This document shows positions 6,956 through 47,689 of a stretch of DNA of 64,000 nucleotides, piece after piece. A model generated the notes under the pieces. It searched no databases, was not told where the DNA came from, and saw only the letters and a list, made by a program, of their open reading frames with translations. Made by a program: the position numbers and the translations under genes. The stretch is from Arenicola marina. Its lineage: Eukaryota > Annelida > Polychaeta > Arenicolidae. Within the stretch, counting starts at the first letter, position 1, and every line of letters begins with the position of its first letter. The DNA is taken from assembly GCA_964019135.1 (NCBI GenBank), contig OZ025264.1, forward strand, positions 2,666,001 through 2,730,000, read 5' to 3'.

Positions 6956-6956
6956 T

Positions 6957-14042: not shown

Positions 14043-14045
14043 TGT

Positions 14046-16877: not shown

Positions 16878-16886
16878 TAAAGGATT

Positions 16887-18120: not shown

Positions 18121-18132
18121 AATAACCTGTAA

Positions 18133-18798: not shown

Positions 18799-18806
18799 TG
18801 ACGTCA
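18799..18806. promoter_or_regulatory. CRE palindrome upstream of the receptor gene
   Basis: An exact TGACGTCA lies about 190 bases upstream of the receptor's ATG. This is the known binding sequence of CREB/ATF proteins. The palindrome is common in repeats elsewhere in this window, so a role here is only a possibility. Confidence 0.35.
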
Positions 18807-18928
18807 GCGTATACGTTTGCACCTGCCGTGCACAATACAATGTCAGTCACAATCGTTGTGTATAGTCGTCCCCGCCGTAACGTATGCAAGTCAGTCATCA
18901 GCTCTAGTAGTTCTCGCGTGTAGTTTAC

Positions 18929-18937
18929 AAAATATAG
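18929..18937 (+). promoter_or_regulatory. Possible TATA-like element
   Basis: The sequence 'aaaatatag' lies about 55-60 bases before the receptor's ATG at 18,992, a plausible place for a core promoter with a short 5' leader. Weak evidence on its own. Confidence 0.2.
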
Positions 18938-18991
18938 ACTTGTGTACTTTGCCCCAACGAGCAGCAAGGCAGAACTCACTACGCCGACACA

Positions 18992-19178
18992 ATGGCGAAT
19001 GTTACTCCAGATTCGACAGGTCTGAACCAGACTGGAGTCTCTACGTCTCTGGGTCTCGCGTCGACCTTGTTGAGTTGCTGCCCTCTCTACGTCTTGGCCC
19101 TAGCGACCGTAGGGTTGAACGGACCAGTCCTGGGCGCCGCAAGCGTCCTTGTGAGGAAGAGAAACAACCGCACTGCTC
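18992..19178 (+). CDS. GPCR exon 1 (N terminus and TM1)
   Basis: Starts at the ATG in 'acaatggcg', encodes the glycosylated N terminus and TM1, and ends in phase 1 at 'actgctc' before the strong donor gtaagt. The final C plus the first two bases of exon 2 give arginine, the usual basic residue after TM1. Confidence 0.85.
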
Positions 19179-22100
19179 GTAAGTACACCACGCAGCGCCC
19201 GCGTCAACTTCATTCAACATCGAGTCAGTCACGCTTGGGCGTTCCTGGTTTGTCGAAATGTAACGCGAAATCGGCCCAAACGCCTGTTTTGTTTTCTATT
19301 TGATTAACATATGTAGAAAAATTAACGTACTTGGGCCGAACTGGCATAGCGACAAATCATTATCTAACCGTGGTTGAACCGTTATATTAATAACGTTGTA
19401 TTAATGTTTACTATTTAACGTTAAATGCTAACTCTGCATGGTTGAACCGTTTTATCAATAACGTTATATTAATGTTCAAATTTCAACATTAAATGTTAAC
19501 CACTATCTAACCATGGTTAAACCTTTATACTTATTTTTAAAATTAAATCTCGTGTAATGCTCCTGCGTACTCGTTATACAGTAGAAATAGTAATTAAGCC
19601 CAGGCGAAAAATGTTGTGTGCTTTTTTGTGACTTTTCCCAAGTGTTTACCAAGAAGATAGCAAATTTACCACTGATGTTTACAACGCCCTTACACTACTT
19701 TCACGGCCAAGTTTGAAAAGCTCCGCAGCGAATGCTGAAGGCAGTGTCAGTGGCGATAAAAGACACAAAATGATATACATCTATTATATTTACAGATGTA
19801 AAACACTTTATGTTATACAACAGTTCATATACTACATTACTCACAATAGATATGATCTCTAAACAAATTTTATCTCCATAATTTTGCCCTTTCATTTAAT
19901 TGTTTTGTTAACTATTTTCTCCGACCCTGGTTTGTTGTCAAACTGTACTCTAACGTTAAGCTAACGATCTCGAAGCAATATTAAAATGCCAACGGAGATG
20001 TAATATTGCCACAACGATCTCGATGCAAACGTTAATATGCGAATTGTTATTTAAACTTGTGAAAACTTTCTCGATGCAAACGTTAATATGCAAACTGTCA
20101 TTTAGTGTTGTGATAACGCTCTCGGTGCAAACGATAATTTGGAAACTGTTATTTAATGTTGTGGCAAGGCTCTCGATGCAAACGTTAATATGCAAACTGT
20201 TATTTAGTGTTGTGGTAACGCTCGCGATGCAAACGTTAATTTGGAAACTGTTATTTAATGCTGTGGCAAGGCTTTCGATGCAAACGTTAATATAAAACTG
20301 TTATATAATGTTGTGGCAACGCTCTCGTTGCTAACGTTATCATGCGAACGGTTATCTAATGTTGCGGTAACGTTCTCGATGCAAACGGTAATATGCAAAT
20401 TGTTATCTAATGTAGTACTAACGTTAGCATGTTAACGTAAACCCAAAAGTAACCAATCAAACCTTGATAAAACGTCACACTAACGTTTACATGCTATCTG
20501 GGTCATGAATCTTCAAAGCAATAATCCTGCGGTATTTTAGGTCCAATACTTTTGCGCGATATAGTAGTTTGCTCGCGTGGGTTACTATAGCAACCACAAC
20601 CGTTATCGGATTTGGTAACTTGGTTTAATTGAGTTTAAGGGTTTAGTCGTTCGAGGGCGAACGTTTTAAAGGGAGGGGGAATGCGGTATTTTAGGTCCAA
20701 TACTTTTGCGCCATACTGTAGTTTGCTCGCGTGGGTTACTATAGCAACCACATCGGTGATGTCACCGCTTGGGTTGAGTTTTAAGTCAGTTAGTCAGTCA
20801 GCGGCGTTGCGGGAGGACGGGCTTTAGCCAACCAGCTAGGAGGGATTTCAGTTGGATGCACCGCCCTGCGGAGCAAGGGGCTGGCAGCAGTTTCACCAAC
20901 TGCTGCCAGGTAAGTTACTCACCGTTATCGGATTTGGTAACTTGGTTTAATTGAGTTTAAGGGTTTAATAAATCATTGAAACTTACCCACTTCGTTTCGC
21001 CTCAATGCTTTCGCCACCACGTGTAAACTTAAGACCGATCTCGGAGCGAACACCCAGTTGGGGTTGTCAAAATTATGCTTTAGAGATATTAGATCAACAC
21101 AACGAGAAGTAAAAGTAAATTAAGTCAGTAGACTACCTACTTCCTAAAATATCACATTTGGTGCCGTGAACCTGCGGTCTTTTCACGTGGTTGAGCGACA
21201 GGTTGCAAAATGGCGAGCGCACTGCCGCTTAATGTTTAGACTAGATTTTATTCTTTTGGATAGGGGATTAAGCGAAGACTCATTTGGGATAAATTTTAAG
21301 ACTTTAACAAGTGTTAACGTAACTAGAGTTGGCAGGGATCTGTGATTTGTATTGTTTGCAAAGATGGCGGACCTTCGGCCTGACTATACTACCCCCCACC
21401 ATTTTCGGCTGTTTCCTATGTTTTAGAATATCTTTATTACCATCCATTACCACCTTTCTGGGCTGTTTTCCATGTGTCAGCCTACGGTCTTTACCACCGT
21501 TTTCATGTATCAGCCAACTGTCTTAACCCATCGCTTTACCAGCATTTTGCTGGTTAATGGAGTGTTACTCTCGTATCTTTACAATGAGGGAACAAACCAA
21601 CGTACATGTACAAGCTTAGGTCACTGCTTGGTCTCGAACCGGCTACCTTACGCACGCCAGCCCGCATGCTTAACCAATGCGCCCCGGCGACTTGCACGAA
21701 AAACAATGTTTGGAACTTTGACTGTATGAACAAAGGAATCATTCTCTCATAAATGTCGCTACTTGTCTTTTAATAACTCGCTAGATGGCGCCACTTGTAT
21801 CATAATCAATCGCCAGATGTCGCTGCCCTATTTCGGCACGTGCCATTTCGCGGAAATTTCCATTTGTCACTCGCGCTGTCTTCATGACCTCGAACGTGCT
21901 ATACGTGAATCCAGACATGACATAGACAAGACAAAAACAATGTAACCAAGGAAACCAACCTACTAACTTTAGTCGAATAATAGAAATATATAGCAAATAG
22001 TTCTTTAGGAATATTGTACTAGTTTCAAGGAATATTATACCTTGTTTTTAAGGAATATTATACCTTGTTTTTAAGGAATATTATACTAGTTTTAAAGGAA

Positions 22101-25100
22101 TATTATACTAGGTTTTTAAGGAATATTATACTTTGAAGGAATATTATAAGTACTTACTACGTTTTTTAGGAATATTATACTAGTTTTACAGGAATATTGT
22201 ACTAGTTTTTTAAGCTTTTTAAGGAATTCTAGACTAGTTTTATGGAATATTATACTACGTTTTAAGGAATATTAGACTTTTTGAGGAATTTTAGACTAAT
22301 TTTTTCAAAGGAATATTATACTACCTTTTAAGAAATATTATATTAGCTTTTTAAGGAATTCTAGACTAGTTTTACAGGAATATTGTACGAGTTTTTTAAG
22401 CTTTTTAAGGAATATTATAATAGTTTTTAATGAATATTATAATAGTTTTTAATGAATATTATAATAGTTTTTAAGGAATATTGTACTATTTTTAGGGAAT
22501 ACTAGTTTTTAAGGTATTACTCGCTACTATTCATCACGGCATCGAGTGTGTATAGCACGTTCTCACACCTTGACACGAGGCAAGCGCGCGACAGTATTCG
22601 CCATGCTCCCGGCATCCAAGGCGTCACTTTTGCATTCAAAGATGGCGACCGACAACAACATTGCATCAATCGCTAAGTCACTATGTTTTGCCGATTAACG
22701 GAACATTATAAACCTGTAAGGACATAATTTGACAAAAATGACATAATTTTACACTTTCAGACAGTCTCTTTTTATTCTTGGGACTTTTTAGGCCTTTTTT
22801 TAGACAGTTTTTTTACAGGCGATTTTTCAATTTTGGTGGTGGGGTTGTGAAGTTGGTCAAAGTTCTAGAATGTTCGACAGGGTGAGGCTGTCACGTGATC
22901 GAAATGCCGGTCTCTGATTGGTCGATGAGTGCATGTTCGCGCCAAAACTGGTTTTGGGCGGTAATTTTTTTTTGGAAGATGTGGCCCCGGTTTCGAATAC
23001 ATGTTGATATGTAGTGTGACACTAGATGGGATCGTACTCGGTTGATAAAGGTCTTGTGGGTTTCCATTGTGCATAGGGTGTAGTGAGGCACAGTTTTTTT
23101 TTTTTGTGGTTTTGCGGGGCACAGATTTGGTGCCAAGGGTTCCACGCACCCAGGGGTACGCGGTGGAAGAAAAGGTCTTGTGGTTTCCATTGTGCATTGG
23201 GTGTAGTAAGGCACAGTTTTTTTTTTGTGGTTTGGCGGGGCACGGATTCGGTGCCATGGTTTCCCACGCAGGTATAAGCGGTGGATGTGTTTTTGTTATG
23301 ACGAAAATTGAAATTTTCAATTTTCGGAATATGTCGGTTGGTCGTGTTTGTGTGTATGTATGTATGTATGTATGTATGTCTGTCCCACTCGAAAACGGGA
23401 AGTCTCTTTGTGGCCTAACTGCTACATGTATCGTTTCGCAATCTTTAACATCTTATAGGCAGCTAATAGGGCTACAACATTCTCGTCACGCAGGTCGAAA
23501 GGTCAAAGGTCAAGGTCACAGCGATTTTTTGAAAAAATAACTAAAAACGCTTATATCTCCGTTAATATTAAAGCTAGAGATCTCGAATTAGGTTCAAAAT
23601 GTGCCCCTCTTTTAGGTGCAGTTTTTGGATATTGTTCACTTTTTGATGCGTAATACTCATTTTCGAGGAAAACGAGATCATAGGTTTTGCGGAAAACGCA
23701 CTAAATAACCTCTGTCAGTTTTTTCGCTTTTTGGCACATTTGCCATCAAGCTATCGCTATTATGTTTAAATATGTCATAGAAATATGAATTGAGATAAGT
23801 TGTGTCAAATCTTAGAGTTTCCAGATACGTCACGTGACGTCACGATGACGTCATTTTCGGTACTTACAAAAAATCATCGAAAATCAGAAAAAAATCACAA
23901 AAATGCGAGAGTAGCATTATATTGTAGGAAAAGTATTTCCTCGTATAGCTACAAACTAAAAACAATACGTTCCTATCTTACTTCCGGTTCCAGGGCCGGG
24001 GGAATTTTTCTATGGGACTTCCCATGTTAAAAGGGCTGTATCTTTAGGCTGGGACAAAATGTTTTGTCGCGTATTTCACAAGTGCCTCCAGCAAACAACA
24101 CCGCGATTTTTTCGTTAGTTGAACATGACGTTTAGTAGCCACAGTGCTTACTATATGCAATTAGAGCAAATAGTGACGTTACAGGATTTTTTTTACATTT
24201 GGCCAATGGTGAAAGATACGGCTTTTCGGTGTTAGCAGAGGCTCCCACGGGTGTCTTATTCAAGCCATCACTCAATGCTTGCAGCTGTGGATGGATAATA
24301 CTAAGCTGAGTCATAATCTGTCAACATGGTTCCATAGCTACATTACTTTTCGGTATATAGTCGAAATCGTTTAACATGGGATCCTATGGGGAAAAATGAA
24401 CTTGATCGAATATGACCTACTTTTGCTCAAGCTATTTCAGTCTCCTTCGCCACACAGTGCGGTAATATCATCTTAAAGCAAGTTATATGAAAAACACGGC
24501 GATCTCTGTATTACTTTTTGTTTCCATGGCAACGAAGCCACTGGCCCAATGATAAATATATAAATTCTGGCATGTTACAGAAAAATCGTCAGAAATCAGA
24601 CACAAATGCTAAAATTGCAATCTTTTCGCCAACTAGTTACCAATAAGCATCTTCAGATCACTTAGTGCTTTAATCCGGCGGATGTTGTCTAGTTATGGCG
24701 CTAGAGCGCTCCGAAGTGGGACGACACCTTTGCGGGGCCGCCAATGATGAGTGAATGGAGATTGTGTCCATCTTGAAAAAATCGTCAAAAATCAGGAAAA
24801 CAAGGTAGAGCTGTGATGTTGATGTCAAATGGTAGGGAACATTGATGGTCAAAAAAATAGTGAAAGAAACAAATTAGTTGCAATATCACTTCGCTTACAG
24901 TGTTCTTTGTTCTTGTCGTCGGTCTCCGTGTTTCCGCAATGATAAGCTAATGCAATTTTTGACCATTTCGCCAAGCCATAGCTGAAGGACTAATCTTTCT
25001 ATCGCCTAGCTCTTTAATCGAATAAGTTGTGGCAGTAAAGGTTGGCATATTGCTGCTTGGACGTTGTCGTGCGTCACGTCATAACGTCACCGTGACGTCA

Positions 25101-28100
25101 TGACGTCACATATCTTACGTAGGCTATTACTCAGCTATTACAAGGTATGGCGACTTTCGGGTTGCTTGACGTTGCAGGTCGTGTTCAGGGACAGTTTGTG
25201 CCGTGTGTAACTTTTTAGGCGCAGGGGATAAGTATGCGTCAAAAATGACGTCATAGCTAACGTGCTCCTACGAAATGTTAGGTTTGCTTTATTTTCAGCC
25301 ACTTTGGCAATAGCTGTCATAACCCGAGTTGATAAGTAGGTACATTAAAGAAATAGAAGCCGTCTTGAGCATTTTCGCGCACGTAAAATGACGTCATGTC
25401 TCGTTAAGACGAAAATTTTCAATTTTCGTCTTATGTCGGTGTGTTCGGTTTGTCTGTCTGCGTGTCTGTCTGTTTGTAACGTAAGACATTATCTTTCGAA
25501 TGCCTTAAGATATCGACTTCCAAATTCACAGAAACATGCGGAATGGCAATTGTCAGGCTAAGTTTGTAGATGGGCCATGTAGGTCAAAGGTCAAGGTCAC
25601 AGGAATTTGTTGAAATTCGCTTAACCATTGAAAGATAGAACCAAAAAACGGGAACATCGCTATAACGTTCGCAGTTTCCATTCAATCATGCTGCAAATTA
25701 TTTCACGTATTGGGCCCATTAGTACCTTCTATATCGTTTTTCATTTGTGCAAATCTCCCGAATAGTTTTCCTGCTAAAAATTCCCAAAGTTTAACATGGG
25801 ACCCTATGAGAGCATTTTGGCGGGAATCAGGCCTCCTTAATTTCTCCATGAAGGGTACATGTCAGACAAACCACACCTTGCGTGAGATATGACATTAGTA
25901 TTTGGGCGTAAAATATTATAAGTGACCAAGGTCACGCTTCCAAGGTCAAGGTCACCTCAAGGTCAAGGTTACGAAACATGTTTTCCCGCGTAACTTTGTT
26001 AATATTTTATATATAGTTTTCGAGCAGTTAATATATAGTTTTCGAGTTATTGGATGATCAATTTTGACATTGCAGACAGTGCAAAAAAATCGCTGTGACT
26101 ACATAAATGCAGGTAGATGACTCATATGTGGTGGAATATGCCCCCATATTACTGACATCATGTATGCCAAATGCCATCGAAATACCAGTAGTTTCGACGC
26201 TGACAAATAATCACACTTTAACATTGCCAAGCCCATTATAAAGCCTCGATACGGCTTGGCAGGGACATTCGGTCCGCCACCCAGATAGACTATGCCAAGA
26301 ATTACGGCGATCGAACTGGCAGTATTCGTTCTGAATATTTCTCGCTATCGCTATTAAATTTTACGTAGGAACAATAGTTTTCACGCGACAGGCTCTGGAA
26401 ATTTCAAAATTTTCCACAACAATTTTTTCCTTTAAATCTCCATGCGATTGACACGAGACTTTGAAGGGACATGAAGGGTTCCACTCAAGTACCCTATATC
26501 AAAAATTATCCCGATCGGACAGTTACTTTTTGTTTCCATGGCAACGCAAAAATTGCCCAATGGTAAAAGATAGGACATTTTTGAAATTTACTAGGAGCTC
26601 AAAACATAGACATCTATAAGCCACGTGACTTATCTTTGACACAACGATTACTTAAGGTCGTATCTTTAAATTGGTTATATTTCAGCAATCTGGGTCAAGG
26701 TTCAAGGTCGTGACCTTGACTATTGTAAATGTCGAGTGCTCGGTTGTAGCTCGAAAACTAAATAACACCTGAGCACCAAACTTACCCTGGCGGATAGGGG
26801 TGACGTAGCTTATGTCAAATCCAATCTCAGCTCGAACCCGGAGTGAGAAACGTAACGGTGCCAGAGCGCCTGGAAGTTGGGGGTTCGAACCCGACTTTTC
26901 TCGGCGGGCCGACGCCCCCAAGCCCGTCACGGTCTGCCTCCCCCCAAAAAACATTCATTTTCACCCCTTTGTGCTGGGGTCATTAATTATATGGCGCGGA
27001 CGGCAAAAGTCGGGCGACGGTTTGTGGTGAGGTATGTCAGTCAGTGAAATAGGCGCCTGGAGCGATAGACGTAATAAATAAAGCTTTCGTAGCTCGGCGG
27101 GCCGACGCCCCCAAGCCGTCACGGTCTGCCTCCACCCAAAAAACATTCTTTTTCACCCCTTTTGTGCTGGTGCCATAAATTATAGGGCGCGGACGGCAAA
27201 CGGCGGGCGACGATTTGTGGTGAGGTGGGGTAAGAGGTACCTTATCGCTAATAATATATGTAGCGAACCTATCGGCCATGCATGTTGTCGCCGCACTTTC
27301 TGCGTATAAAGTTTCTCATATCGGGTCATCAACAACACTGAGTCATGTATAGTACAAAGTCAGACAAATAAATAAACAAGACCAGGAATTTATATTACCC
27401 TTTTTACAGGGTCGCTATGGTGTAAATATTCTTCAGGCGTACTCACACAACCTATTTGGACATAAGGTTTTTCTGTCATGGCTGTCCCCATCCCCCTCAC
27501 ACGTCTCGCCATAATGATCCTATCGTGTATCACGTGTCTGTATGACGTATATCGTGTCTCGTATCATGTTTTATCACATGCTCGGCGGGCCGACTCCCTC
27601 AAGCCGTCTCAGATTAGGGGTGCCCGCCCGAAGAACACGAGCAGCCAACCGCCCCTTCCACACCGGGTGCCAATTGATGCCGGACAGAGCTGACATTTGT
27701 GGTGAAAGAGATATACCCCTATTGAGGAAACATTTTAAAACTTGCGACCGGGGGTTGGGGAAGAACGTTCTTTCAAAGAGCGGGTTTGCCGTGAAAAGGG
27801 GCTCTGCATGGAACTGCAACATTTTGAGGGTAAAACACCCCTTCCGTGCGGATTTCGGCGGTAAAACGCCTTTTTCGAGCAGATTTTCAGGGTGAAACGC
27901 CCCTAAGTGCGGGCGCGCGTTTCGGAGGTGAAAAAGATAGGGGCTTTACCGCGCGCCACCTCCACCCCCCCCTCCCCCACCCTTCCCCGCTCGTAGTTTG
28001 CGATTATCTAGATAACCGACCGATACCCTAATCAACTGCTATTTGCAGTAAATTTATTCCACTCTCCTCATTTGGGTGATTGGCAGATAAGGGCACATTG

Positions 28101-29436
28101 CGTCGCCTAGAATACACATATCACCTTCAGTCTTGCACAAACATTTCGTCTATTATACCAAATCTTAAGATCATTACAAGGCACTATTTTACAAACTGGC
28201 GAATCAATTCTGTCGTGTTCAATCAGCCGCAGGGCGCATATCTGTGTACCGACAGATTCATTAATTTAAATGTTTGGGCCCTGTAGTACAAATAAAATAC
28301 ATAGATACATGGCAAGTGTTCATTGGGTAAATCAATTGGTTCAAATTGAAGATATTTCATTACAGTAACATGTGAATATTTACAGGGTGTATAGGCCAAC
28401 ATACAGCCACACATATCATGAGCTTTTTTTATCGTCAGGCCGTTTTGCGTCACATCTAATGATCGATCGTTCTCGGTACACTTAAGTAACAACTGAGAGG
28501 GCGGGTTAGGGGCTTTTACCCCCCCCCCCCCCGCCCTCCCTCACACACACACTCGTATACGCACACGTCTGTGGCGCCCTTTAAGCGCCGACACTAATGT
28601 ACATAGGCAAACAAACATACTAAAATAGACTATTGTCAGTTGCAACGCTTTACCATCAATACTGCGCGAGCGGTGGTTCGTCTAACCAAGAAAATGCACG
28701 TAGTCGATTTCCCCACTCACTTATGATGGGCAACGGCAACTGACCTATGAAGGTACCGCTCTCTGTAGTGACCGGGCGCCCACGCCAAGCACACTGTCTG
28801 AATTCTGCGCAAATGCCTTTTTATCCATGAATGATCCCCACTAAGTGCCGCAAAGATCGCAGCTCTAGCTTGCTTATTTTTGACGTGACGTCATAAGACG
28901 TCGCCGACGCTTACCAACACGTAGCAAATTGGCTTCTAATTTGCCAGTTTAATTACTTATTAACTGACAGTGATGGAAACTAATACTAAAGTAAGTGAAC
29001 ACGAAACGAGTCCACAATGACGTCGGCTCACTTTAATTACGACGTCATTTTTTACGCACACGTTTAGGGACCGCAAATAAATTTACGAATGGCAGTACTT
29101 GTCCCTGGGTATAATGTACAAGGTACAAATAAACCGAAGTCACTATAACGTATAGCCGAGTAATGGCCATTGTAAAACACATCATGATGACGTCATGGCA
29201 TGACGGCAAAGTCAAAATAATAAGAAGCGAACGTTTTGCCCGACAACCCCAAAATGTTGACCAGCACGGCGGTATGCGCATCAGCCTTTCAGTTATGGAT
29301 TGACGAAATTACGTTTTCCTTTCCTAGTTATTAGCCGCAAAGATTTCAGGTCTAGCTTGTTTTTCCGATTTTTGACGAATTGTCTAACTTATCCAGAATC
29401 TCTATGCTTTATCATTGGGCCACTGTTTCGTCAGTC

Positions 29437-29485
<49 letters not shown>

Positions 29486-35400: not shown

Positions 35401-38400
35401 GGATTCTAACTTTGTAACTAAAGGCGGTTTCGGCAGTGATGGCCGGTTTGTTTTTGAGAAAACAAACAAACTAAAACCTAGCTACAGCAGGCTACAGCAG
35501 TGCTTTCAGTTTTAGACTTCTCAAGTTATCAACTGGGAGAAACGGACCCACCAGCAACCTCTGCCAGGATTAAAAATTCCTTATGTACTTTGTAGCAAAA
35601 CATTAAATTAAATGTAATTTTTCTTCAGATAATAAAATATTTAATTTAACATAACAATGTTCCTGTCATTACAATATTACTGTTATAGCCATGACATATC
35701 TTTATCTGTGAATATTTATATATTAATATGCCAATTCTGGATGGTCAATTGTATAGCTTCATACATAGTATAGTAGTAGTTGTATTTCATATATGTCATA
35801 CATAGTCTCATACAATATATGTAGGAGTTATAAGTTTCACACTTCAGATTTCTTTGATAATATATTAGATACAATCTTCAGATACCTTTAGAGTGGATAA
35901 GTAAAAGATTAATCGAATTGATTATGGAATATATGGCATTCTGGAATACCGGTGCATGTTAATGGCTATCTAGTTTGTGTACCAAAATGGCTTTAGCTTC
36001 AGGCAATACAAGAAATCATATTAATGTTTGGAAAATCTGATACTTCAACAATAGGCTTTATAATTGAGACATTTTTGATTCACTGTAATACATATAACTA
36101 ATTGTTGAAATTTATAGAGATACCCCTCTGCTGTTATGAAGGTTAAATGTCATTAGCATTTTGTTTAGATAGCCTAATCCATGTTGTATGATATTGCCAT
36201 GTAAATGGATACACACATTTTATCTAGTAATTTAAACATACATACTTTCCAGGTTTGTTGATGTTAAGTAATCATGTGAATCATACTCATATCGGTTATC
36301 TCAGAATTAACTTCAGGTAAACCCAAAACTTATATCTTTGTTTGCAAAAAGCAGATACTTCAACAGTAGGATTCATAATTAAAACATTTTTGATTTAATC
36401 TATTACAAATAACTAATTGTTGAAATTGATAGAGATAGCACTCTGTTGTTATGAAGGTAAAATTTTAGTAGCATTTTGTTGAGATAGCCTAGCCCATGTT
36501 GTATGATATTGGAGTGTAAATGGATACACACATGTACCGGTACTTAAAATTCCTATACATACTACTTAGCCCATGGTCTAGCAGGATTAAATAAAAAGCT
36601 AATGATTGATATAACTAATTAGAAATATATATAGTTTATAAGTATAGGGCTAACGTTGGATTATAGAAATTTGTAACATTCCAGAATACATGGCATTGGC
36701 TTTGAAGGTCTATGCCAGCCCTCTTTATGTAAATTTGTTAAAATTACTATGTTATCTACTAATTTAAATATACATACTTTCAAGGTTTGTTGATGTTAAG
36801 TACTCAAGTAAATTATACTCATATTTCTTTTCTCAGAATTCGTTATCACTAGTCATATATTATACTTTTCGTTAACTATGTAGTTCTGCATATCCACATT
36901 TGTGTAATCATCACATTTGTCTTGACAAATATAACTCTAATATATGATTTGATGATCTGAGTTACAAACTACATAAATAAAAGCCCAGATATTCAATTTG
37001 ATGATTTATATGATCTAGCAATTTATATATTTCTCAAAATGTATGTATATAAACGTGTCAAATAGGTTCAAAAGCATGAGCAGTGGGACCGCTGATTTAT
37101 TCAGTGCATCTATTACTGTCAACAATATCTTCCAACGTCTATATTTCGCCCCGTGCGTGTGTGGGGTGGGTGGGTGTATACTTAACACACTGCTGGGTTG
37201 GGGGGGGGGGGTGGTGGGGGAGGTGTCCGCAGTAAAGGCTCCCTCTTTTCACCTCCAAAATCCGCCCTGAAGGGGCGTTTTTTTCCGTTGACCCCTCTAT
37301 GAGACCCTGTCGCAGTTCCCTATTTTCATCGCAATTTTTGTCACGGCAAACCCGCTCTGAGCACCCCCCACGGGTAGTAAGTTATAAAATATCAAGGGGC
37401 ACCCGCGGGACCACTGCCCCCGCGGGATACATGGCTTGTAACTCCCGATATGCTGGAGTTCGCCATAGGCTCTGGATCGCGGATGAATCACCACTACTTC
37501 TCGTGACGTCAGTGCGCGGAGGCCTCATAACGCCCTACACACAGCAAAGAAATAGTCCCGTCTTTAACAAGCGTTTTTCAAGCTATCGTTATACCTAAAA
37601 ATATATAGTTTTCGCCAAAAAATAGTATGATTCATTATAAACTCCCATAGAATATTGTGTCCATCAATTCCCTTTCCCTTTAAGGCGCAGTTTTTGGGGT
37701 TTTGTTCACTTTTTGATGCGTATTACTCATTTTCGAGTAAAATGTGGTCATAAATTTTGCGGCAAACGCACTAAATGACCTCTGTCTGTTTTTTCACTAT
37801 TTGGCACATTTGCCATAAAATTATCGCTATGATGTTGTAATATGTCATAGAAATATGAATTGAGATGAGTTGTGTCGAATCTTAGAGTTTTCTGATACAT
37901 CACGTGACGTTACGATGACGTCACTTTTGGTACTTACAAAAAATCGTCAAAAATCAGAAAAAAATCACAAAAATGCGAGAGTAGCATTATATTGTAGGAA
38001 AAGTAGTTATCATATAGCAGCAAACAATAAAAACAATATGTTCCTATCTTACTTCCGGTTCCAGGGCCGACGGCATTTCTCTATGGGACTTCCCGGGTTA
38101 AAGCGCTGGATCTTTACGCTTGGAAAAATGTTTTGTTGTGTATTTCACAATTGCCTCCATCAAACAACACAGCGATTTTTCCTTAGTTAAACATGGTATC
38201 TAGTAGTCACAGTGCTTACCATATGCAATTGGAGCAAAAAGTGACGTCACAGGATTTTTTTGAAATTTGGCCCATGGTGAAAGATACGGTTTTTTGGTCC
38301 AAGCAGAGGCTCCCACGGACGTCCTATTCAGGCAATCACTCAATGCTTGCACCTGTGGATGGATAATACTAAGCTGGGTCATAATCTGTCAACATGGTTC

Positions 38401-41400
38401 CATAGCCATATTACTCTCCGGTATATAGTCGAAACCGTTTAACATGGGATCCTATGGGGAAAAATGAACTTGATTGAATATGACCTACTTCCGTCCAAGC
38501 TTTTTCAGTCTCCTTCACAAAGCAGTAAGGTACTATCATCGCAACGCAAGTTATAAGAAAAACACGGCGATTTCTAAATTACTTTGTGTTTCCATGGCAA
38601 CGAAGCCATTGGCCTAATGATAAACATACAGATTCTTTCCATTTAAAGAAAAATCGTCTAAAATCAGATAATAATGCTAAAATTGCAATATTTTCGCCGT
38701 CTAGTTGCCAATAAGCATCTACAGATCACTTAAGTCTTTAAACAGACAGATGTTGCCTAGTAAGGGCGCTACAGCGCTTCGAAGTGAGCCGACACATTTG
38801 CGTGGCCAGCCAATGATGAGTGAATGGAGATTGTGTCCCATGTTGAACAAATCGTCAAAAATCAGAAAAACATGCCAGAGCTGTGATCTTTGCGCCAAAT
38901 GGTAGGAAAAATTCATATTCAGAAAACTAGTACAAAAAACTAATTACTTGCTATATTACTTTGCCCACAGTGTTCTTTGTTCTTGTCGTCGGTCTCCGTG
39001 TCTCCGCATTGATAAACTAATGCGATTTTTGGCCATTTCGCCAAGCCATAGCTGAAGGACTAGTTTTTCGATTGCCTGGCTCTTTATAGCTAATGAGCTA
39101 TGACAGTAAACTTTGGCGCATTGCTAATTGTACGTTGTCGTGGGTCACATCCTGACGTCACCATGACGTCATAGTTTTACAAAGGCCATGACTCGATTAT
39201 TAAACGTCATGGCGACTTCCGATTTATTTGACGTTGTATCTTATATCTAGGGTCAAATGCTGCCGCGGGTAACTTTTTTCGCGATACCGAAACGTGTGCG
39301 TCAAAAATGACGTCGAAGTTTACGTTACCCGACGAAATTGTGAAATCGTTTCATTTTCATCTATTTAGCCACTAGGTAATATCACTATAAGTTCATAAGT
39401 AGGTGACATGAAAAGTAGGAAAGCCAATTTGTTTCATTTGGTAAGCGTCAGTGACGTCATGTGTGCCAATGGCATCGATGCGACAAGAATAGTTGACGTC
39501 CACCTGGCGTCAAGTGGCGTTTTGACGTTTAAATGGCCATAACTCGGTTAATATTCAAGCTAGGGAACCCAGATGTGGCATGAAGCGAGAAGAAGATGTA
39601 AAGTTGAACAGCGAAAATTGCGATATAATTGCTCTAGGATGCTTAGTTTGGCCGCTAGAGCGCTCGCAAATGGTGCACCCCTCCCCGCAGACCCTCCCAT
39701 TATGAGTCAACGGCGATATCAACCGGCACTCTTTCGAGTTGCGATGGCCGCCGTTCGCTTAATAGCGACGCTAGAGAATCGGGACGGGTTGAAAAAGACG
39801 GGCGAACGTCGACTTGGGTAAGGAATCGGCAATCGCGTTTGGCCTAGCAGGCTTAGTTTTGGCGCTAAATGGCTCCGTAATTTAGCAGTGATGAGTCTGA
39901 GAACAGGGATTACGGCATGACAAAACACACGTAGAAAGTCGGAATTTAGACGTAGTCACTCGAAATTGCGCCCTCTATATGGATGAACAACCCGTGTTGA
40001 ACAGCAGCCGTTAGATTGTGCTCATCCAGCATCCGCATCCTAGGGGTCTAATTTGGGCTAAATTGCGCTCTCAGCGAGCCGAATACAGCTTTTAGTGGAT
40101 AATTTGGGCTCGAATGCCTTCAGATATCGACTTCCAATTTCATCACGAGTTGTGGAATGGCCATCTGAATAATCAAAACAGTACGTTCCAATCTCACTTC
40201 CCGTTCTAGGAGTGACGGTAGTAAAGCACGCTTTTACCAATAACATTATGTTAATATCGGCTTATACAGTGCACACATGGCTCAAAGTAGTGCCTGCAGC
40301 GCCCAATTGGCCATTCATAACGTTTAAAGCGCGTACGTTGCCCATTGAAGGCTTTACTGAGCCCAAATTGGCAATTGAAGACCATTTTTAGCCCAAATTG
40401 GCCGCAATTATTCCAATGTGCCCATCTACTTAGGCGACCGCTACCATCACTATGACTCCATAAGGCGTTATAATAAGACAAAAAGGGCCATTGGTAACAC
40501 CGTTCACCAATGCCGGTGATAGAATTCCTGGACCACGGTTTGACGCCAAAACGACCCTGTTTGCATGTTTCAAAAGACACACTCTTTGACCCAAAATCGA
40601 TTTTCTTCATCATCAGTGTCCCCACTGACTTCTTGTTTGTTTAGGCGTCTGCTACTACAGCTTGTCAGGCAGTAGCGGCTCACTTTTGTCTAAGGATGGA
40701 TTGAGAATGTTTTCTAAAGAGCTGGTGCATCACCTTAGGCTCATTCTTTTCAGAAATGCAGCCTCTGTTCATGTGTAGCAAACTTGATCATTCTCCGGCA
40801 CCAACCTGTCTAAAATGGTCAATGTTGTAGGGTTCTGTATTAGGCAGTAACGGATCACTTTAGGCAGTAGCGCATCACGTCATCTGGCGGCCTGTTTTGA
40901 CAGTAAAGCAGGTATCATATAAATTGACTGTCTCAAAGATACGAAATCAGGTTGTCGACGATTTAATATGGCATATAGTTTATAGTTTGGTCAAATAATT
41001 TCTAGCTTATTTAGATATTTTCGGAGCCGTACTGCAAACGATATGGGACCAATGATTCATGCCAGGCCACCTGGCGCTAGCTTGCCGGTATAGCTTGGCG
41101 GCAAAGACGTGCGTCACTGATCCGCTACTGCCGAGAAAGCAGCTAACCCAATTTTGATGACAGTAATTCTGCTTTTTGGAGGAATCTGATTATTTTTTAT
41201 GAAGCTTCACATGGTATATACAGCTATGAAAAAATTGAGCACGAGAGAACTCGCGGAGCAAAGAGCTCGCTACCGGAAGTGCATTTGAGGTAAAAAAGAG
41301 TGTAAACACTGGTAGAACCTCGCGTTTTTGGACTTATTTCAAGTCAGTGGTATCTTGAAATAAGTTCAAATTTTTTGCATTTAGTGGCTTGTAATAGAAA

Positions 41401-44400
41401 CGATATGACTGTGAACAGCGGAGTGATCCGCTACTGCCTGTGATCCGTTACTGCCCGACAAGCGGCAGGCCTAGCTCACCGACTTCCAATCATCGTTTTC
41501 AACAAAATTCACCGAAGAATAATAAACAGAACTCAGCGATAAGTGTTATTAAATTGATTTACACCAGTTCTTTATTCATTTACGATTTTGACAGCTGATG
41601 ACAATGATATCACTTGTCCGAGAGTGTTACTGTCAGTGACCAGGTGACAGTGTACTGGTACTGGTATACTGGTACTGGTACCGTGCACAATCACAAGCAT
41701 GAAAAATCCAATGAATCATATTTGACAAAACTGTCCAAAAAAAAGTGTTTCATTTGTTTACTACAAAATTATTCTTTTGTTAGATAACAAATTGCCTTTG
41801 ACTGAAAGTCAACTTTATTAGCTTTTCCTTAGCTTAATTTAGAGGGAGTTATTTAATTTTTCTATATTTCACTATATTAATTAGGCCACACGCATGTTAT
41901 TTCCTCTCCCTATACACATTTTGGAAATACTAAGGACAATTACATCTATAATATCTCATATAGGCCTACTGAATTCCCTTGGTACATGTACATCTAGAAA
42001 ACTAATTTTGGGGGAAGAAGATATGGCAAGATTTCTAATACAGCTCCTCTAAAATACCGGTAATCGTTGAACTATTTTCATTCATGATGCATAACTCAAC
42101 AAGATTGGCACTCAGAAAGGTAACTATATATATGGGAGTTTAAATCTGTAATTGAGGTGGATACACATAAAGTGCATAAAAGCAAACGAAAATGTAGGCC
42201 TGTATATTTATAGTTTGCTTTATGATTTTTACAGACAGTAGCTGTCACACCCAACTCAGTCAATTTCCATGCAAGCGTTCATTTGTTATTACTAAATCTA
42301 ATTGACTTTGCTAATTACATTCAGCATGTTCAGGGTTTATTATTCTTTTGGTCTGAGATTTGGTCAAACTACATGTACTGGAAATAACATCATCTTAAAA
42401 AAAAATTGTTTTAATTATTATACATAGTCTACATGGTCTAAGAGGGATAAAAAATAGTGTTATTGGCAATTGCAACAAATAAAAATAATTACCACCAGTT
42501 TGACATTTGTTTCACCCAAAAGTTTTTATTTTTGTCAAAGTGTCCATTTTAGCCTGACTTAAATGTGAAACATACCCATGTTGTTAAGTGGTGCTTACAT
42601 TCAAGCCTTGTCATACTGTATCATAGTGACTCAATTTTCTTTGTAAATGTTATACATTAAATATCAATGGAATGGGTCAGGTGCAAACTGGAGTCATGCC
42701 TCAAAATCTTAGGGTTACTTTTACCATGTAAAGGATGTCATATCAAAGAAAGGTGTGAGATATCTATCCTCCATAAAAATACAGACATTTAACTTTTCTT
42801 TTACCTTCAAGGTTTCATCATTTTAGTCTAATTTAGTTTTGGTTCAAGTGGAATATTATCACGATGGTTCAATTATGGGGCATTGTGATAAGATAACCAT
42901 TCAGCGAAAATACAGTTATGAATTCCATATTGTTAACATATGAAGTGTATCACACAATCTGCTATTGACCTTTTGGATAGAATATTGGCTTACTCTGCCT
43001 GTAGTTGTTGCATGCCAGTTTTGTTTTATTAATGATCATAGGACCGTCGTCAGTATTTCATTACTTAATTATCACTTCAATCTGTGTTGTTATTTGAATT
43101 AAACATACAGGCCTACATTTTCATTTGCTTTGACATGCAGTTTATGTATATATTACAGATTTCTGTATGAGTAGCAATTTTGTTGAGTTATGCATTGTAA
43201 ATATATATATATATTAACAGATTATGTAGATGAGCTGCCCCAGAAATCTGCAACACTTCCTTTATTAGTAGAACTTTTTTCGACCAGAAAATAATTGCGC
43301 TCGCACTACTAGGTTTTACCTATAGGACATATTATTTATTATAACAGTCATTATTATTATTGTTTTGTTGCTATTGTTATTATTACATGATTCAATATAC
43401 ATGTACATGATACACGGCTTCATTGGTAATAAGATATCTACATGTAATATTTCAACCACAATACAACTGCTTCTCCAGTTCGTTTTACATCAAGTGCATC
43501 TGAAAGATATTGTTGTATGATACGATTATACGGAAGCCTTGAATACATCAATACATAATTCCAATGATATATACATTTGAATTTGTTCACTATGGCAGTC
43601 CTGTTTATTCCATACCATTCTATGTTGGCCCAATTCCCAGGCTACGTGGCCACTATGGCAGTGCTGCTGGATCCCATGCTGGTGCTGGAGCGGTGTCTGT
43701 CTCTGCCCGGCCTGGGGGAGACCTACTGGGCTCAGTGCGAAGTCTTCCATCTGGGCCACGCGGGGTTCCTGACCGCCGTGGCCATGGTGGCTCTGCTGGC
43801 CGTCAGCCTGCTGGGACTCAGCCTGACTCAGAGGGTGTCCCTAGCGAGGAAGAAAGACTGCAACCTGCCGTGTCAGGGACGCGGGTGCCGTTACCAGGGT
43901 AATGTAGCCGCTGTCGCGGCCGAAAGGCACACCGCGCGTTCACTGATACATCTACTTAGTCTCCAGGTGGCGCTGTGGCTGGTCCAGGTGGCGCTGTGCG
44001 TTACAGGGGGATATTTGAGGATGTCCGACCTGCACCGAGCCGCTCGGCTGGTGGATTATTTAGGGCCTGTCATGAGACCGTTGTTGCTATTGGTTACCTC
44101 ATCGCGCCTGCGCATTCAAGTGCAGTCGATGCAGCGGTGGTCGAGCTTGAGCAGGAACCGAGTGAGGCACGCCGGCTTGAACGCGTGGGAGAGACCCCGC
44201 CCTAGCCTGCTGCCCCGCAGCCCAATCGCCGCCAACCTCAGCCAGCTGACGGTGCCCCCAGCGAGTCCCAATATCCCGCTGAGTCGCTTCCTGTTCGAGC
44301 ACTATAACTGCGACTCCTCATGCCGCACGGAGCTCGCGTGTCCGTCAGTCACACGACCGCTGACGTCGATAAGTCTTCGACTCCCTTCCCCGATCTCAGC

Positions 44401-44488
44401 GCACCCGTTAGACGCAAGTCCTGCCCCACGCCGGCTCGCCTGGCAGCCGACGCTGAGCTGCTCCGGGAATCGCTTACCGCCCAAGTGA
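18992..44488 (+). CDS. Orphan rhodopsin-like GPCR, four exons, 443 aa
   Basis: A seven-transmembrane receptor of class A type, expected in the plasma membrane; the ligand cannot be told. Four exons (18992-19178, 32899-33103, 33433-33524, 43641-44488) have GT/AG introns and join in phase (1, 2, 1). The N terminus has NVT and NQT glycosylation sites. TM1 is about residues 29-54 with GLNG; TM2 64-89 with NLMAADL, where D73 fits the conserved TM2 aspartate; TM3 106-128; TM4 150-172 with W158; TM5 203-224; TM6 262-287; TM7 294-315. Oddities: ATDG at 128-131 replaces DRY, NPxxY is replaced by RPLLL, and no cysteine is seen at the top of TM3. The tail is long and Ser/Pro-rich. GC-rich coding in AT-rich introns supports a real gene. 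I do not recognise the subfamily. Confidence 0.85.
19950..20410. repeat. Tandem repeat, about 48 bp unit, in receptor intron 1
   Basis: About nine copies of a unit reading 'ctcgatgcaaacgttaatat', 'gcaaactgttattta' and 'tgttgtggcaacg' lie in tandem. The period is close to a multiple of three, so a frame stays open for 90 codons; this is not a gene. Confidence 0.9.
20682..21156 (+). repeat. 5' LTR
   Basis: Begins TGCGGTATTTTAGG and ends CCTAAAATATCACA, so its ends form an imperfect inverted repeat with TG...CA limits. It holds a perfect hairpin with 12 bp arms (CTGGCAGCAGTT, 20,881-20,892, and its complement to 20,909) directly followed by a donor-like gtaagt, and an AATAAA at 20,967-20,972. 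Confidence 0.9.
21157..21175 (+). promoter_or_regulatory. Primer-binding-site-like sequence
   Basis: Immediately after the LTR's terminal CA comes 'tttggtgccgtgaacc', the TGG-type start and position expected for a tRNA primer site of LTR retroelements. The tRNA partner was not identified. Confidence 0.6.
21625..21692 (-). repeat. tRNA-derived SINE head
   Basis: On the minus strand the sequence contains an A-box-like TGGTTAAGCATG (21,665-21,676) and an exact B box GGTTCGAGACC (21,630-21,640) at the spacing of an internal RNA polymerase III promoter. The stems are not those of an intact tRNA, so a SINE head is the likely source. It lies inside the LTR element. Confidence 0.55.
22020..22515. 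repeat. Degenerate AT-rich tandem repeat, about 20-25 bp unit
   Basis: About twenty imperfect copies of 'aaggaatattatactagttt' fill the segment, with length variation between units. Confidence 0.9.
23045..23285. repeat. Tandem duplication, about 120 bp unit
   Basis: Two copies of a unit containing 'tttccattgtgcat', 'gtgtagtnaggcacag', a T run, and 'ggcggggcac' lie head to tail. The open frames on both strands here follow the duplication and are not treated as genes. Confidence 0.8.
23299..25412 (+). repeat. Mosaic repeat family R4, copy A
   Basis: Starts with the near-palindrome 'gacgaaaattgaaattttca' and runs about 2.1 kb. The order of blocks is the same as in copy C (34,667-34,953 continuing at 37,684-39,490): a DR1-type AGGTCAAAGGTCAAGGTCA, 'atatctccgttaatattaaa', 'cactttttgatgcgta', a CRE-rich block, 'cttacttccggttccagggc', 'gatcctatggggaaaaatga', and a second CRE-rich block. 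Non-coding. It sits within the LTR element's interior. Confidence 0.8.
25413..26690 (+). repeat. R4-related repeat, copy A2
   Basis: A second unit begins with a hairpin (arms TAAGACGAAAATT and complement around 25,408-25,437), has its own 'tgtctgtctgtttg' run and an AGGTCAAAGGTCAAGGTCA at 25,581-25,599. It then diverges from copy A into a body with further 'caaggtcaaggtcac' blocks. Non-coding. Confidence 0.6.
26690..26900 (+). repeat. Repeat family R3, copy 2 (opposite orientation)
   Basis: Contains 'gggttcgaacccgac', an exact B box, with 'gccagagcgcctggaagttg' before it and 'gtcgagtgctcggttgtagc' further upstream. The order matches copies at 3,360-3,740 and 52,490-52,900 read on the other strand. 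Confidence 0.65.
26900..27245. repeat. Duplicated segment, 193 bp offset
   Basis: The block 'ctcggcgggccgacgccccc' with its following 150 bases occurs at 26,900 and again at 27,093. A short third piece lies at 27,580-27,615. Open frames across the duplicates on both strands are not supported as genes. Confidence 0.85.
27705..27995 (+). repeat. Dispersed repeat family R1, copy 2
   Basis: Matches copy 1 through 'cattttaaaacttgcga', 'gcgggtttgccgtgaaaa', 'ggatttcggcggtaaaa' and 'ggtgaaaaagataggggctt', and ends in C-rich runs. No coding potential. Confidence 0.6.
27996..29440. other. No gene recognised; LTR-element interior
   Basis: Contains C runs near 28,510-28,530, CRE-type palindromes near 28,888 and 29,190, and short frames with no recognisable domain. 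Confidence 0.4.
29442..29484. repeat. (GT)n microsatellite
   Basis: About 21 uninterrupted GT dinucleotides, followed by 'ctgtctgt'. It stands at the left end of R4 copy B, where the other copies have their own GT/TCTG-type run. Confidence 0.95.
29485..30160 (+). repeat. Repeat family R4, copy B
   Basis: From 'atctccgttaatattaaagc' to 'cttacttccggttccagggc' it follows copies A and C block for block, including the CRE-rich 'gacgtcacgatgacgtcac'. It runs straight into family R2 at 30,165, as copy C also does at 39,535, so R2 is probably a part of the same composite element. Confidence 0.8.
30165..30662 (-). other. 165-codon open frame of unknown nature
   Basis: An ATG-started frame on the minus strand. 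Its second half is the R2 repeat. Its first half is not, and contains the acidic segment KKQEVSEDTDDDENRLWVKE. The DNA coding this segment (about 30,417-30,487) has a close counterpart at 40,568-40,637. I recognise no domain. It lies in the LTR element's interior and is best read as repeat-derived. Confidence 0.25.
31200..31850. repeat. GC-rich 18 bp tandem array
   Basis: Dozens of imperfect copies of 'gcatcggcgtccgcgaca' and shorter relatives. The 18-base period keeps several frames open on both strands: Ala/Ser/Thr-rich and Arg/Pro/Gln-rich on the plus strand, and Asp/Ala/Val-rich on the minus strand. No one of these is favoured, and it lies just upstream of the right LTR. Confidence 0.9.
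32351..32364 (+). promoter_or_regulatory. Polypurine tract before the 3' LTR
   Basis: A 14-base all-purine run, 'aaagggagggggaa', ends exactly where the 3' LTR starts, the expected plus-strand priming site of an LTR element. The same run precedes the LTR at 20,682. Confidence 0.75.
32365..32839 (+). repeat. 3' LTR
   Basis: 475 bp, the same length as the 5' LTR and about 98% identical by hand count. Has the same hairpin (32,564-32,592), donor-like sequence and AATAAA (32,650-32,655). Followed by ATCC, matching the left flank. Confidence 0.9.
32899..33103 (+). CDS. GPCR exon 2 (TM2 and TM3)
   Basis: Follows 'tgatgcag' and ends in phase 2 before gtaatt. Encodes VWIINLMAADL, a typical TM2 start, an extracellular loop without a cysteine, and TM3 up to ATD. 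The acceptor and branch region lie within the 59 bases left between the LTR element and the exon. Confidence 0.85.
33433..33524 (+). CDS. GPCR exon 3 (intracellular loop 2 and TM4 start)
   Basis: Follows 'gcgattttacag' and ends in phase 1 before gtaagt. The frame set by exon 2 reads LVGSLITPFTHSRKTAHFAK then CCLAMWVAA, giving the loop-2 proline and the conserved TM4 tryptophan. The other two frames lack this pattern. Confidence 0.8.
33701..34226 (+). mobile_element. L1-like LINE, 5'-truncated 3' end
   Basis: Flanked by a 13 bp target duplication ATGCATATTCAAA (33,688-33,700 and 34,227-34,239) and ending in a poly-A run at 34,211-34,226. It encodes a C-terminal knuckle reading CTHCGGLHDIMHLIYDCPHA, the CxxC...H...C pattern found after the reverse transcriptase in L1/Tx1-type LINEs; a stop follows soon after. 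Only the last 0.5 kb was copied, as is usual for target-primed insertion. Lies in receptor intron 3. Confidence 0.85.
34667..34953 (+). repeat. Repeat family R4, copy C, left part
   Basis: Starts with 'tatgacgaaaattgaaatgt' and carries AGGTCAAAGGTCAAGGTCA at 34,839-34,857. It is cut at 34,953 by a transposon insertion and resumes at 37,684. Confidence 0.85.
35177..35515 (+). CDS. THAP-domain protein, 112 aa
   Basis: A zinc-dependent DNA-binding THAP domain, likely a transposon protein. The ATG in 'aaacatggcg' is the best start. After a basic N terminus comes CMAPGC, then 40 residues and CSDH, which is the THAP C-x4-C...C-x2-H zinc site; a tryptophan (KEW), proline (WRPC) and phenylalanine (DHF) sit where expected. 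The protein ends about 35 residues after the domain, whereas transposases continue for hundreds. The frame is unbroken. It could be an independent accessory THAP protein of a Kolobok-type element, or the first exon of a longer gene. Confidence 0.7.
   Translation: MAESRKSQAVRKKKLNTSCTGSHCMAPGCTSWYYKCQWKRCHTLTTDLKLRKEWLQATNVADPPLHWRPCSDHFLDSNFVTKGGFGSDGRFVFEKTNKLKPSYSRLQQCFQF
36020..36540. repeat. Imperfect duplication inside the THAP transposon
   Basis: The segment from about 36,024 to 36,235 ('agatacttcaacantagg', 'taactaattgttgaaatt', 'cccatgttgtatgatattg') is repeated at about 36,340-36,530 with moderate divergence. Another block ('ggtttgttgatgttaagta') occurs at about 36,250 and 36,783. 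Confidence 0.8.
37150..37440 (-). repeat. Dispersed repeat family R1, copy 3 (reverse)
   Basis: On the minus strand it gives the R1 blocks in order: 'gcgggtttgccgtgaca', 'ggattttggaggtgaaaa' and 'ctttactgcgga', next to G/C runs. It lies inside the THAP transposon and so inserted after it, or was part of it. Confidence 0.55.
37684..39490 (+). repeat. Repeat family R4, copy C, right part
   Basis: Resumes at 'ggcgcagtttttggggt' exactly where the left part stopped, then follows copy A through every block to 'aaaaatgacgtc' near 39,300 and beyond. Non-coding; short frames mirror those of copy A. Confidence 0.8.
39535..40020 (+). repeat. Repeat family R2, copy 4
   Basis: Begins 'ggccataactcggttaat', continues through the 'ctaggatgcttagtttggcc' block and into 'gacttgggtaaggaatcggc'. 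It is the longest R2 copy and joins what is seen separately at 2,386, 18,190 and 30,165. Confidence 0.75.
40660..41463. mobile_element. 804 bp inverted-repeat element with subterminal motifs
   Basis: The left end begins GCTTGTCAGGCAGTAGCGGC and the right end, read on the other strand, begins GCTTGTCGGGCAGTAACGG, an inverted repeat of about 24 bp with three changes. The motif GGCAGTAGCGGATCAC recurs near the left (about 40,845 and 40,865) and, inverted, near the right (about 41,110 and 41,425). Such clustered subterminal motifs are typical of transposase-binding sites in DNA transposons. No protein is encoded. No clear target duplication was found, so the superfamily is open. Confidence 0.65.
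41464..43640. other. AT-rich intron sequence, no gene recognised
   Basis: The right part of receptor intron 3. Contains a 'tactggtactggta' simple repeat near 41,652-41,690 and long AT-rich unique sequence. No exon-like stretch with codon bias was seen before the acceptor at 43,640. Confidence 0.5.
43641..44488 (+). CDS. GPCR exon 4 (TM4 to C terminus)
   Basis: Follows 'ccaattcccag'. The frame fixed by exon 3 completes TM4 and encodes TM5-TM7 and a long tail, ending at TGA 44,486-44,488. The loop between TM5 and TM6 has a Cys-rich stretch (CNLPCQGRGC). An upstream in-frame ATG at about 43,592 lies in the intron and is not needed. Confidence 0.85.
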
Positions 44489-44826
44489 CGGGCGACGCCG
44501 CACGGAGGGGGTCCAGGCACGGCAGCGCGTTGCTGACAGGTCACGGGGCTCGGCTGGCCGCCACATACAAAGAGTCACTGGCGGGGGATATCCCCTCAGT
44601 CGGCGACCGGCTCACAGCATGGTCCGCGTTTCCGGTTCCGGTAGTCGGCGAATCCGTAACGGAAACCGAGGATCTTTTGTCGGCGAGGCTCGGAGATCTA
44701 CAGAGGAGACCGGCGAGCAGGTCTGCATCGGTGGTCGCGCGTCACGAGACAAAGACTGCTAGGCCCCGGGCTCGCAAACGCTTTTTGTCCGTGCCGTTCA
44801 TTACATGTAGCATGGCTGATGGGTAA
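44320..44826 (+). other. Overlapping open frame, possible true receptor tail
   Basis: A second frame overlaps the end of exon 4 and continues 338 bases past the receptor's stop. Codon choice stays GC-biased and the product has charged, helix-prone stretches (TETEDLLSARLGDLQRR) and a basic end (RPRARKRF). One base of insertion or deletion near 44,320 would swap the receptor's tail into it. This could be a real alternative, an assembly error or chance in GC-rich sequence. Confidence 0.4.
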
Positions 44827-47685: not shown

Positions 47686-47689
47686 TGTT

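What the first reader, a model, noticed from the sequence alone, without database searches (positions are those of the whole stretch)
18992..44488. A complete four-exon GPCR gene scattered over 25.5 kb
Four separate GC-rich exons join with matching phases (1, 2, 1) and strong donors (gtaagt twice, gtaatt once) to give seven transmembrane segments in the right order. No single exon would be recognised with confidence alone. It is probably missed or fragmented by automatic annotation because introns 1 and 3 exceed 10 kb.
Basis: partly seen in the sequence, partly recalled or inferred. Interest (0 to 1): 0.75.

Follow-up and report, generated by a model that had tools for sequence, protein, structure and literature searches.

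The report
Divergent receptor gene, transposon-stretched, three copies
This is a real but ordinary-looking four-piece gene for a seven-helix cell-surface receptor in an annelid-like worm genome, spread out by mobile DNA in its introns; it is the best preserved of three copies found, and its tail end appears to have slipped out of frame.

Summary
The four exons are present as described: phases 1, 2, 1, three GT-AG introns, 443 codons. The product matches Pfam 7tm_1 (E 8.6e-5, 22.6 bits, below the curated 30.5). No exon matches alone; none of four reversed or shuffled controls match. New evidence: the same genome holds two further copies, on contigs C1 and C8, aligned over exons and introns, with intron 2 splitting the DRY-position codon in all three. 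The 25.5-kb span is secondary: intron 3 is 0.4-0.5 kb in the sisters and intron 1 about 0.2 kb (C8) to 2.1 kb (C1). Here intron 1 holds an LTR element, and both introns hold high-copy repeats. "Complete" is not supported: a 25-bp length difference from both sisters puts the last 50 residues out of the frame that C1 keeps to a shared stop. Canonical switch residues are replaced in all three copies. C1 and C8 are broken. Selection evidence for this copy is mixed. Verdict: divergent class A-type receptor gene, expression unproven.

The parts
18992..19178 (+). Exon 1: start codon, N-terminus, TM1 (N1.50); ends in phase 1
   Evidence: start codon is the first ATG of an open frame 18938-19303; aligned in C1, where it is interrupted
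32899..33103 (+). Exon 2: TM2 (D2.50) and TM3; ends inside the codon at position 3.50, phase 2
   Evidence: aligned in C1 and C8; 1 change specific to this copy against 10.9 expected at the intron rate
33433..33524 (+). Exon 3: second intracellular loop and TM4 (W4.50); phase 1 at its end
43641..44488 (+). Exon 4: end of TM4 to TM7 and C-terminal tail, stop at 44486-44488
   Evidence: DNA search with 43600-44900: 83% over nearly all of it in C1; 87% and 91% for two pieces in C8
44338..44826 (+). Tail frame kept by C1 to the same stop codon; open for 162 codons here but out of frame with the 443-residue reading because of a 25-bp length difference at 44337/44338
   Evidence: a composition shuffle leaves this frame open in 42 of 5000
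19179..32898 (+). Intron 1 (13.7 kb; about 0.2 kb in C8, which lacks exon 1, and 2.1 kb in C1)
20639..21156 (+). 5' LTR (518 bp) of an LTR element inside intron 1
   Evidence: 98.3% identical to 32322-32839; dispersed family
32322..32839 (+). 3' LTR of the same element; the alignment to C1 and C8 resumes at its end
33104..33432 (+). Intron 2 (329 bp), interrupts the codon at the DRY Arg position; conserved in all three copies
33525..43640 (+). Intron 3 (10.1 kb; 489 bp in C1, 418 bp in C8); 33654-43329 has no collinear counterpart in C1 or C8 and holds high-copy repeats
4948..51937 (+). Block with collinear fragments in C8 (and, for about 5.0-44.9 kb, in C1): a segmental duplication that carried the gene and its flanks; in C8 the gene body is inverted between the flanks

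Best explanation
This is one of three paralogous copies of a four-exon gene for a divergent class A-type (rhodopsin-like) seven-transmembrane receptor in an annelid-like genome. A genomic block carrying the gene, about 11 kb long as it now stands in C8, is present on three large contigs (shown). The copies on C1 and C8 were later broken (shown). The copy in this window kept an open seven-helix frame and all splice sites (shown), has an LTR element and other high-copy repeats in introns 1 and 3 that the sisters lack (shown), and its cytoplasmic tail went out of frame (shown as a difference from both sisters; that this copy is the changed one is inferred from the shared stop in C1). If made, the protein would be an orphan plasma-membrane receptor. 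Because Arg3.50, Pro6.50, Asn7.49 and Tyr7.53 are all replaced, I expect it to signal through G proteins weakly or not at all, and to work, if at all, by a non-canonical route such as arrestin coupling, ligand uptake or pairing with another receptor (inference). I put the chance that it is expressed and functional at about one half.
For: Frame, phases and splice sites. Only Pfam hit is 7tm_1, E 8.6e-5, with 0 of 4 controls hitting it. Local alignment to chemerin-like receptor 1 places N1.50, D2.50, D3.49 and W4.50 in register, though at E 0.047. Two sister copies with the same exon borders. Intron 2 splits the codon at DRY-Arg after its second base, a placement that PMC3151243 (passages read) describes for a number of rhodopsin-like GPCRs. 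Past purifying selection on the C1 and C8 branches: pN/pS 0.38 and 0.36, p 0.0007 and 0.0008 (0.37 and 0.34 in the recount). In this copy, changed amino acids avoid the helices: 4 of 24 changed codons lie in TM segments that make up 44% of codons, p 0.005, or 0.010 after merging neighbours (4 of 25, p 0.003). TM replacements are 4 against 16.2 expected at the intron rate, p 0.0003.
Against: The Pfam score is below the curated cut-off. No PDB sequence matches better than E 0.047. The same paper notes that DRY introns may have arisen more than once, so the intron position is not proof of descent. Over the whole frame, the branch of this copy shows no purifying selection: 27 replacement and 7 silent changes, pN/pS 1.37, p 0.56 against neutral (28 and 7, 1.42), and differs from the sisters (Fisher p 0.004). 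With silent sites as yardstick the TM depletion is not significant (4 against 8.5, p 0.075). No stop in the frame is weak evidence, since only 1.2 would be expected from 34 neutral changes, P(0) = 0.31. The tail frameshift itself suggests decay. Signature residues are absent. The fold of the exon 4 piece was too poor to use (mean pLDDT 44).
Confidence: 0.78

Rival explanations
1. A decaying pseudogene: this copy too is no longer under selection; the open TM frame is merely recent, and the frameshifted tail and repeat-filled introns are stages of decay.
For: pN/pS 1.37 on this branch (1.42); tail frameshift; sister copies are dead: C1 has a 2.6-kb inverted-repeat insertion in coding exon 1, a lost acceptor AG before exon 4 and an 8-bp frameshifting length difference; C8 has lost exon 1, has its gene body inverted, a 0.68-kb insertion in exon 4 and small length differences in exons 3 and 4.
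Against: All six splice sites intact, no stop in 393 codons; replacements depleted in the helices (p 0.003-0.010); exon 2 with 1 change against 10.9 expected.
Confidence: 0.4
2. An active receptor that lost its long tail: the 7TM core is kept while the tail was truncated and now evolves freely, changing desensitisation or coupling.
For: Region contrast: TM dN 0.013, loops 0.043, tail 0.077 on this branch; tail replacements exceed the silent-rate expectation (13 against 4.7, p 0.001).
Against: Part of the tail excess is one cluster at codons 325-340, possibly one event; only 34 changes in all; the branch is unrooted, so some changes may belong to the common stem of C1 and C8.
Confidence: 0.45
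3. A chance chain of open stretches with no gene.
For: No exon alone is recognised; Pfam match is below the cut-off.
Against: Two further genomic copies with the same exon borders; coding-type pattern of changes between C1 and C8 (32, 16, 51 by codon position); frame open in 0 of 5000 shuffles.
Confidence: 0.02

Closest known systems
Class A (rhodopsin-like) GPCRs, Pfam 7tm_1 (PF00001)
   Same: Profile match over residues 52-276; hydrophobic segments in order; N1.50, D2.50, D3.49, W4.50, W6.48, P7.50; intron in the DRY-Arg codon, phase 2
   Different: Score under the curated cut-off; C3.25 is Ser, R3.50 is Gly, P6.50 is Gln, N7.49 is Arg or Ser, Y7.53 is Leu in 3 of 3 copies
Chemerin-like receptor 1 and other PDB receptors (closest PDB sequences)
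   Same: Weak local similarity over TM1-TM4 (residues 43-170)
   Different: E 0.047 at best, not significant; no subfamily can be named
Atypical receptors with an altered DRY motif, such as some atypical chemokine receptors (recalled; abstracts in the listing describe ACKR3 as recruiting arrestin without G-protein activation)
   Same: Expected to be poor at canonical G-protein activation
   Different: No sequence relationship shown here; the comparison is of presumed working mode only

Membership tests
Class A GPCR | Match to 7tm_1 above the curated score | tested here: inconclusive
   E 8.6e-5 but 22.6 bits against a cut-off of 30.5; 0 of 4 controls match it
Class A GPCR | Seven transmembrane helices in order | tested here: inconclusive
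   Six hydropathy peaks; TM2 below the threshold, placed by motif
Class A GPCR | Most conserved residue of helices 1, 2, 4 and 7: N1.50, D2.50, W4.50, P7.50 | tested here: met
   Present in this copy and in each sister readable at that place; C8 lacks exon 1, so N1.50 was read in 2 of 3; numbering by motif, recalled
Class A GPCR | DRY arginine 3.50 and cysteine 3.25 | tested here: not met
   Gly and Ser in 3 of 3 copies; both are also replaced in some accepted class A receptors (recalled)
Class A GPCR | CWxP Pro6.50 and NPxxY Asn7.49, Tyr7.53 | tested here: not met
   Gln in all; Arg, Arg, Ser; Leu in all (this copy, C1, C8). So I call it class A-type or class A-derived, not a canonical member
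Class A GPCR | Intron in the DRY-Arg codon after its second base (frequent, not universal) | tested here: met
   3 of 3 copies; literature placement in passages of PMC3151243, which also calls its common origin debated
LTR retrotransposon (intron 1 insert) | Paired direct LTRs, dispersed family | tested here: met
   518 bp, 98.3%; 45 matches from 40 scored of 763 candidates. No clear target-site duplication recognised by eye; described only

The most novel reading that the evidence does not exclude
A small worm receptor family lost nearly all canonical class A activation switches before its block was duplicated, yet stayed under selection, so it worked by a non-G-protein route; today one intact seven-helix copy survives with a freshly replaced tail.
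Probability: 0.15. Interest if true: 0.4.

Novelty: new member of a known kind. Interest (0 to 1): 0.2.

Why it matters
It is a clear example of a receptor gene that exon-by-exon profile searches miss and that sister copies in the same genome can validate without RNA data. It also gives a three-copy case in which the loss of receptor switch residues precedes duplication. Beyond that it is an orphan, unproven receptor gene.

Tried and rejected
Other GPCR relatives in the genome: a TM-core search at E up to 10 listed 14 matches, 12 in the three copies and two at chance level (E 0.995, on C9, where the reverse strand of L028 holds an LRR-bearing receptor-like frame by my reading; and E 1.29). A 7tm_1 scan of the genome reported 154 matches from 147 scored of 1272 candidates; the printed list was cut, and this gene is not among the printed rows, as would be expected if its exons do not match singly.

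A transposon-carried gene was considered because the upstream edge (18.2 kb) carries a dispersed repeat of about 105 bp. It was dropped because collinearity with C8 and C1 continues far past that edge.

No Rfam match at the gathering threshold and no tRNA in the window. No subfamily from PDB sequences. The AlphaFold model of the exon 4 piece is of low confidence and was not searched. Literature searches on annelid GPCRs and DRY-less receptors were seen as listings with abstract beginnings only (12 of 63 and 8 of 23,547 papers shown); none shown names this gene, which is no test of whether it is in print. For annelid mitochondrial order I saw the listing and passages of PMC7682095, which discuss the Pleistoannelida pattern without listing it in what I read. 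PMC3151243 was found through the listing.

Correction made on checking: the few C8 bases next to its exon 4 insert were taken from one side of the insert; one search repeats the counts with the other side (window copy 28 and 7 instead of 27 and 7), without change of conclusion.
Full report
Observation. The four exons are in the sequence at the stated places. Lengths 187, 205, 92 and 848 give phases 1, 2, 1; donors are GTAAGT, GTAATT and GTAAGT; all three acceptors are AG; the joined frame is 443 codons followed by TGA. Pfam gives a single family, 7tm_1, residues 52-276, E 8.6e-5 and 22.6 bits, below the curated 30.5. Hydropathy shows six peaks, with TM2 below the threshold. The closest PDB sequence is chemerin-like receptor 1 at E 0.047, not significant, but it aligns TM1-TM4 in register.

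Genome. The window lies at G000:C19:2666001-2730000 of an unnamed 867-Mb assembly of 762 contigs. Contig C762 is a mitochondrial genome: COX1 by Pfam, other genes recognised by me from the translations. The order COX1, COX2, COX3, ND6, CYTB, ATP6, ND5, ND4L, ND4, rRNA-sized gap, ND1, ND3, ND2, as I read it all on one strand, is that of most annelids; this is recalled, not from a call. I therefore call the genome annelid-like.

Sister copies. A protein search found two further copies, on C1 (within 31271952-31276617, minus strand) and C8 (within 38940119-38942767, minus strand). The exon 4 DNA search gave 4 matches, all in these three places. Exons and introns align: 82-91% identity in the main pieces for C1 and 81-93% for C8, with the same splice positions. 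Collinear fragments extend from about 5 kb to 52 kb of the window in C8 and from about 5 to 44.9 kb in C1, so a block was duplicated, not only the gene. In C8 both flanks keep their order but the gene body is inverted between them and exon 1 is missing. In C1 coding exon 1 is interrupted by a 2.6-kb insert with terminal inverted repeats (40 of the first 41 bases match), the acceptor before exon 4 reads AA, and an 8-bp length difference shifts the tail frame. C8 exon 4 carries a 0.68-kb insertion, and exons 3 and 4 have small length differences. Both sisters are thus broken.

Introns. Intron 3 is 489 bp in C1 and 418 bp in C8; intron 1 is 2.1 kb in C1 and about 0.2 kb in C8, where exon 1 is missing and the start is taken from the aligned intron sequence. 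In the window, intron 1 contains a pair of 518-bp direct repeats, 20639-21156 and 32322-32839, 98.3% identical. They belong to a dispersed family (45 matches from 40 scored of 763 candidates), and the alignment to C1 and C8 resumes at the end of the second. This is an LTR element, probably younger than the block duplication (intron differences between this copy and the others are 7-19% by piece). I recognised no clear target-site duplication. A repeat of about 1.7 kb is shared by introns 1 and 3 and is very common in the genome (40 matches from 40 scored of 3764 candidates). So the long introns are secondary.

C-terminal tail. Both C1 and C8 have 25 bp more than the window at 44337/44338. In the window the frame used by the sisters remains open for 162 codons from 44338, and in C1 it ends at the same stop codon; in shuffled sequence such a frame is open in 42 of 5000 trials. 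In C8 the tail is cut by the inversion breakpoint. So the last 50 of the 443 residues are probably the result of a frameshift, and the ancestral protein was about 560 residues. With three unrooted copies, an insertion in the common stem of C1 and C8 is not formally excluded; the shared stop and the long open frame argue against it. A cytoplasmic tail can be lost without loss of the helices, so this does not by itself kill the gene.

Motifs. D2.50, D3.49, W4.50, W6.48 and P7.50 are kept in 3 of 3 copies and N1.50 in the 2 that have exon 1, while 3.25 is Ser, 3.50 Gly, 6.50 Gln, 7.49 Arg or Ser, and 7.53 Leu (numbering by recalled motifs). These losses therefore precede the duplication. Intron 2 falls after the second base of the 3.50 codon in 3 of 3 copies, the DRY intron position described in PMC3151243, of which I read passages; the paper also says that the common origin of DRY introns is debated.

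Selection. Counting changes unique to each copy over 318 of 393 codons (73 dropped for gaps, mostly exon 1, which C8 lacks, and 2 for three-way differences): window 27 replacement and 7 silent, C1 27 and 25, C8 22 and 22; pN/pS 1.37, 0.38, 0.36; p against neutral 0.56, 0.0007, 0.0008; window against the other two, Fisher p 0.004. With the C8 bases beside its insert read from the other side: 28 and 7, 26 and 25, 21 and 22; 1.42, 0.37, 0.34. So C1 and C8 were constrained for much of their history, and the window copy shows no overall constraint. By region, however, its replacements avoid helices (4 of 24 changed codons in TM, which hold 44% of codons; p 0.005, or 0.010 after merging neighbours; 4 of 25, p 0.003), and exon 2 has 1 change against 10.9 expected at the intron rate. 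TM replacements are 4 against 16.2 expected by introns (p 0.0003) but 4 against 8.5 by silent sites (p 0.075). C8 shows no such avoidance (11 of 22, p 0.79), and C1 does weakly (5 of 25, p 0.012 raw, 0.095 merged). The numbers are small and the two yardsticks disagree; I hold function and decay about equally likely.

Conclusion. The finding is a real four-exon class A-type receptor gene or very recent pseudogene, one of three copies found, with repeat-enlarged introns, degenerate switch motifs and a frameshifted tail. As a gene it is ordinary; its orphan status and missing motifs are of modest interest.

Noticed in passing
window 6958-14041: 35-bp minisatellite of about 206 copies with strong GC skew, upstream of the gene; it lies inside the duplicated block, since 6424-8393 aligns at 86.6% to C1 31285706-31287681.
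   Followed up: partly
window 45469-46100: Eight 79-bp tandem copies, 99% alike, downstream of the gene; about one unit stands at the corresponding place in C8.
   Followed up: partly
window 35072-35512 (+): THAP-domain reading frame (Pfam E 1.1e-5) inside intron 3, probably of transposon origin.
   Followed up: no
window 49444-49791 (+): Reverse transcriptase fragment (RVT_1, E 2e-14), a retroelement remnant; further retroelement-like frames by eye at 48-51 kb and 55-59 kb.
   Followed up: no
window 61963-62613 (-): 216-codon open frame without Pfam match at E 0.01, gene-like to the eye.
   Followed up: no
G000:C1:31276616-31279242: 2.6-kb insert in exon 1 of the C1 copy with terminal inverted repeats of about 40 bp and an imperfect 8-bp target-site-like duplication, resembling a hAT-type DNA transposon (family recalled).
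   Followed up: partly
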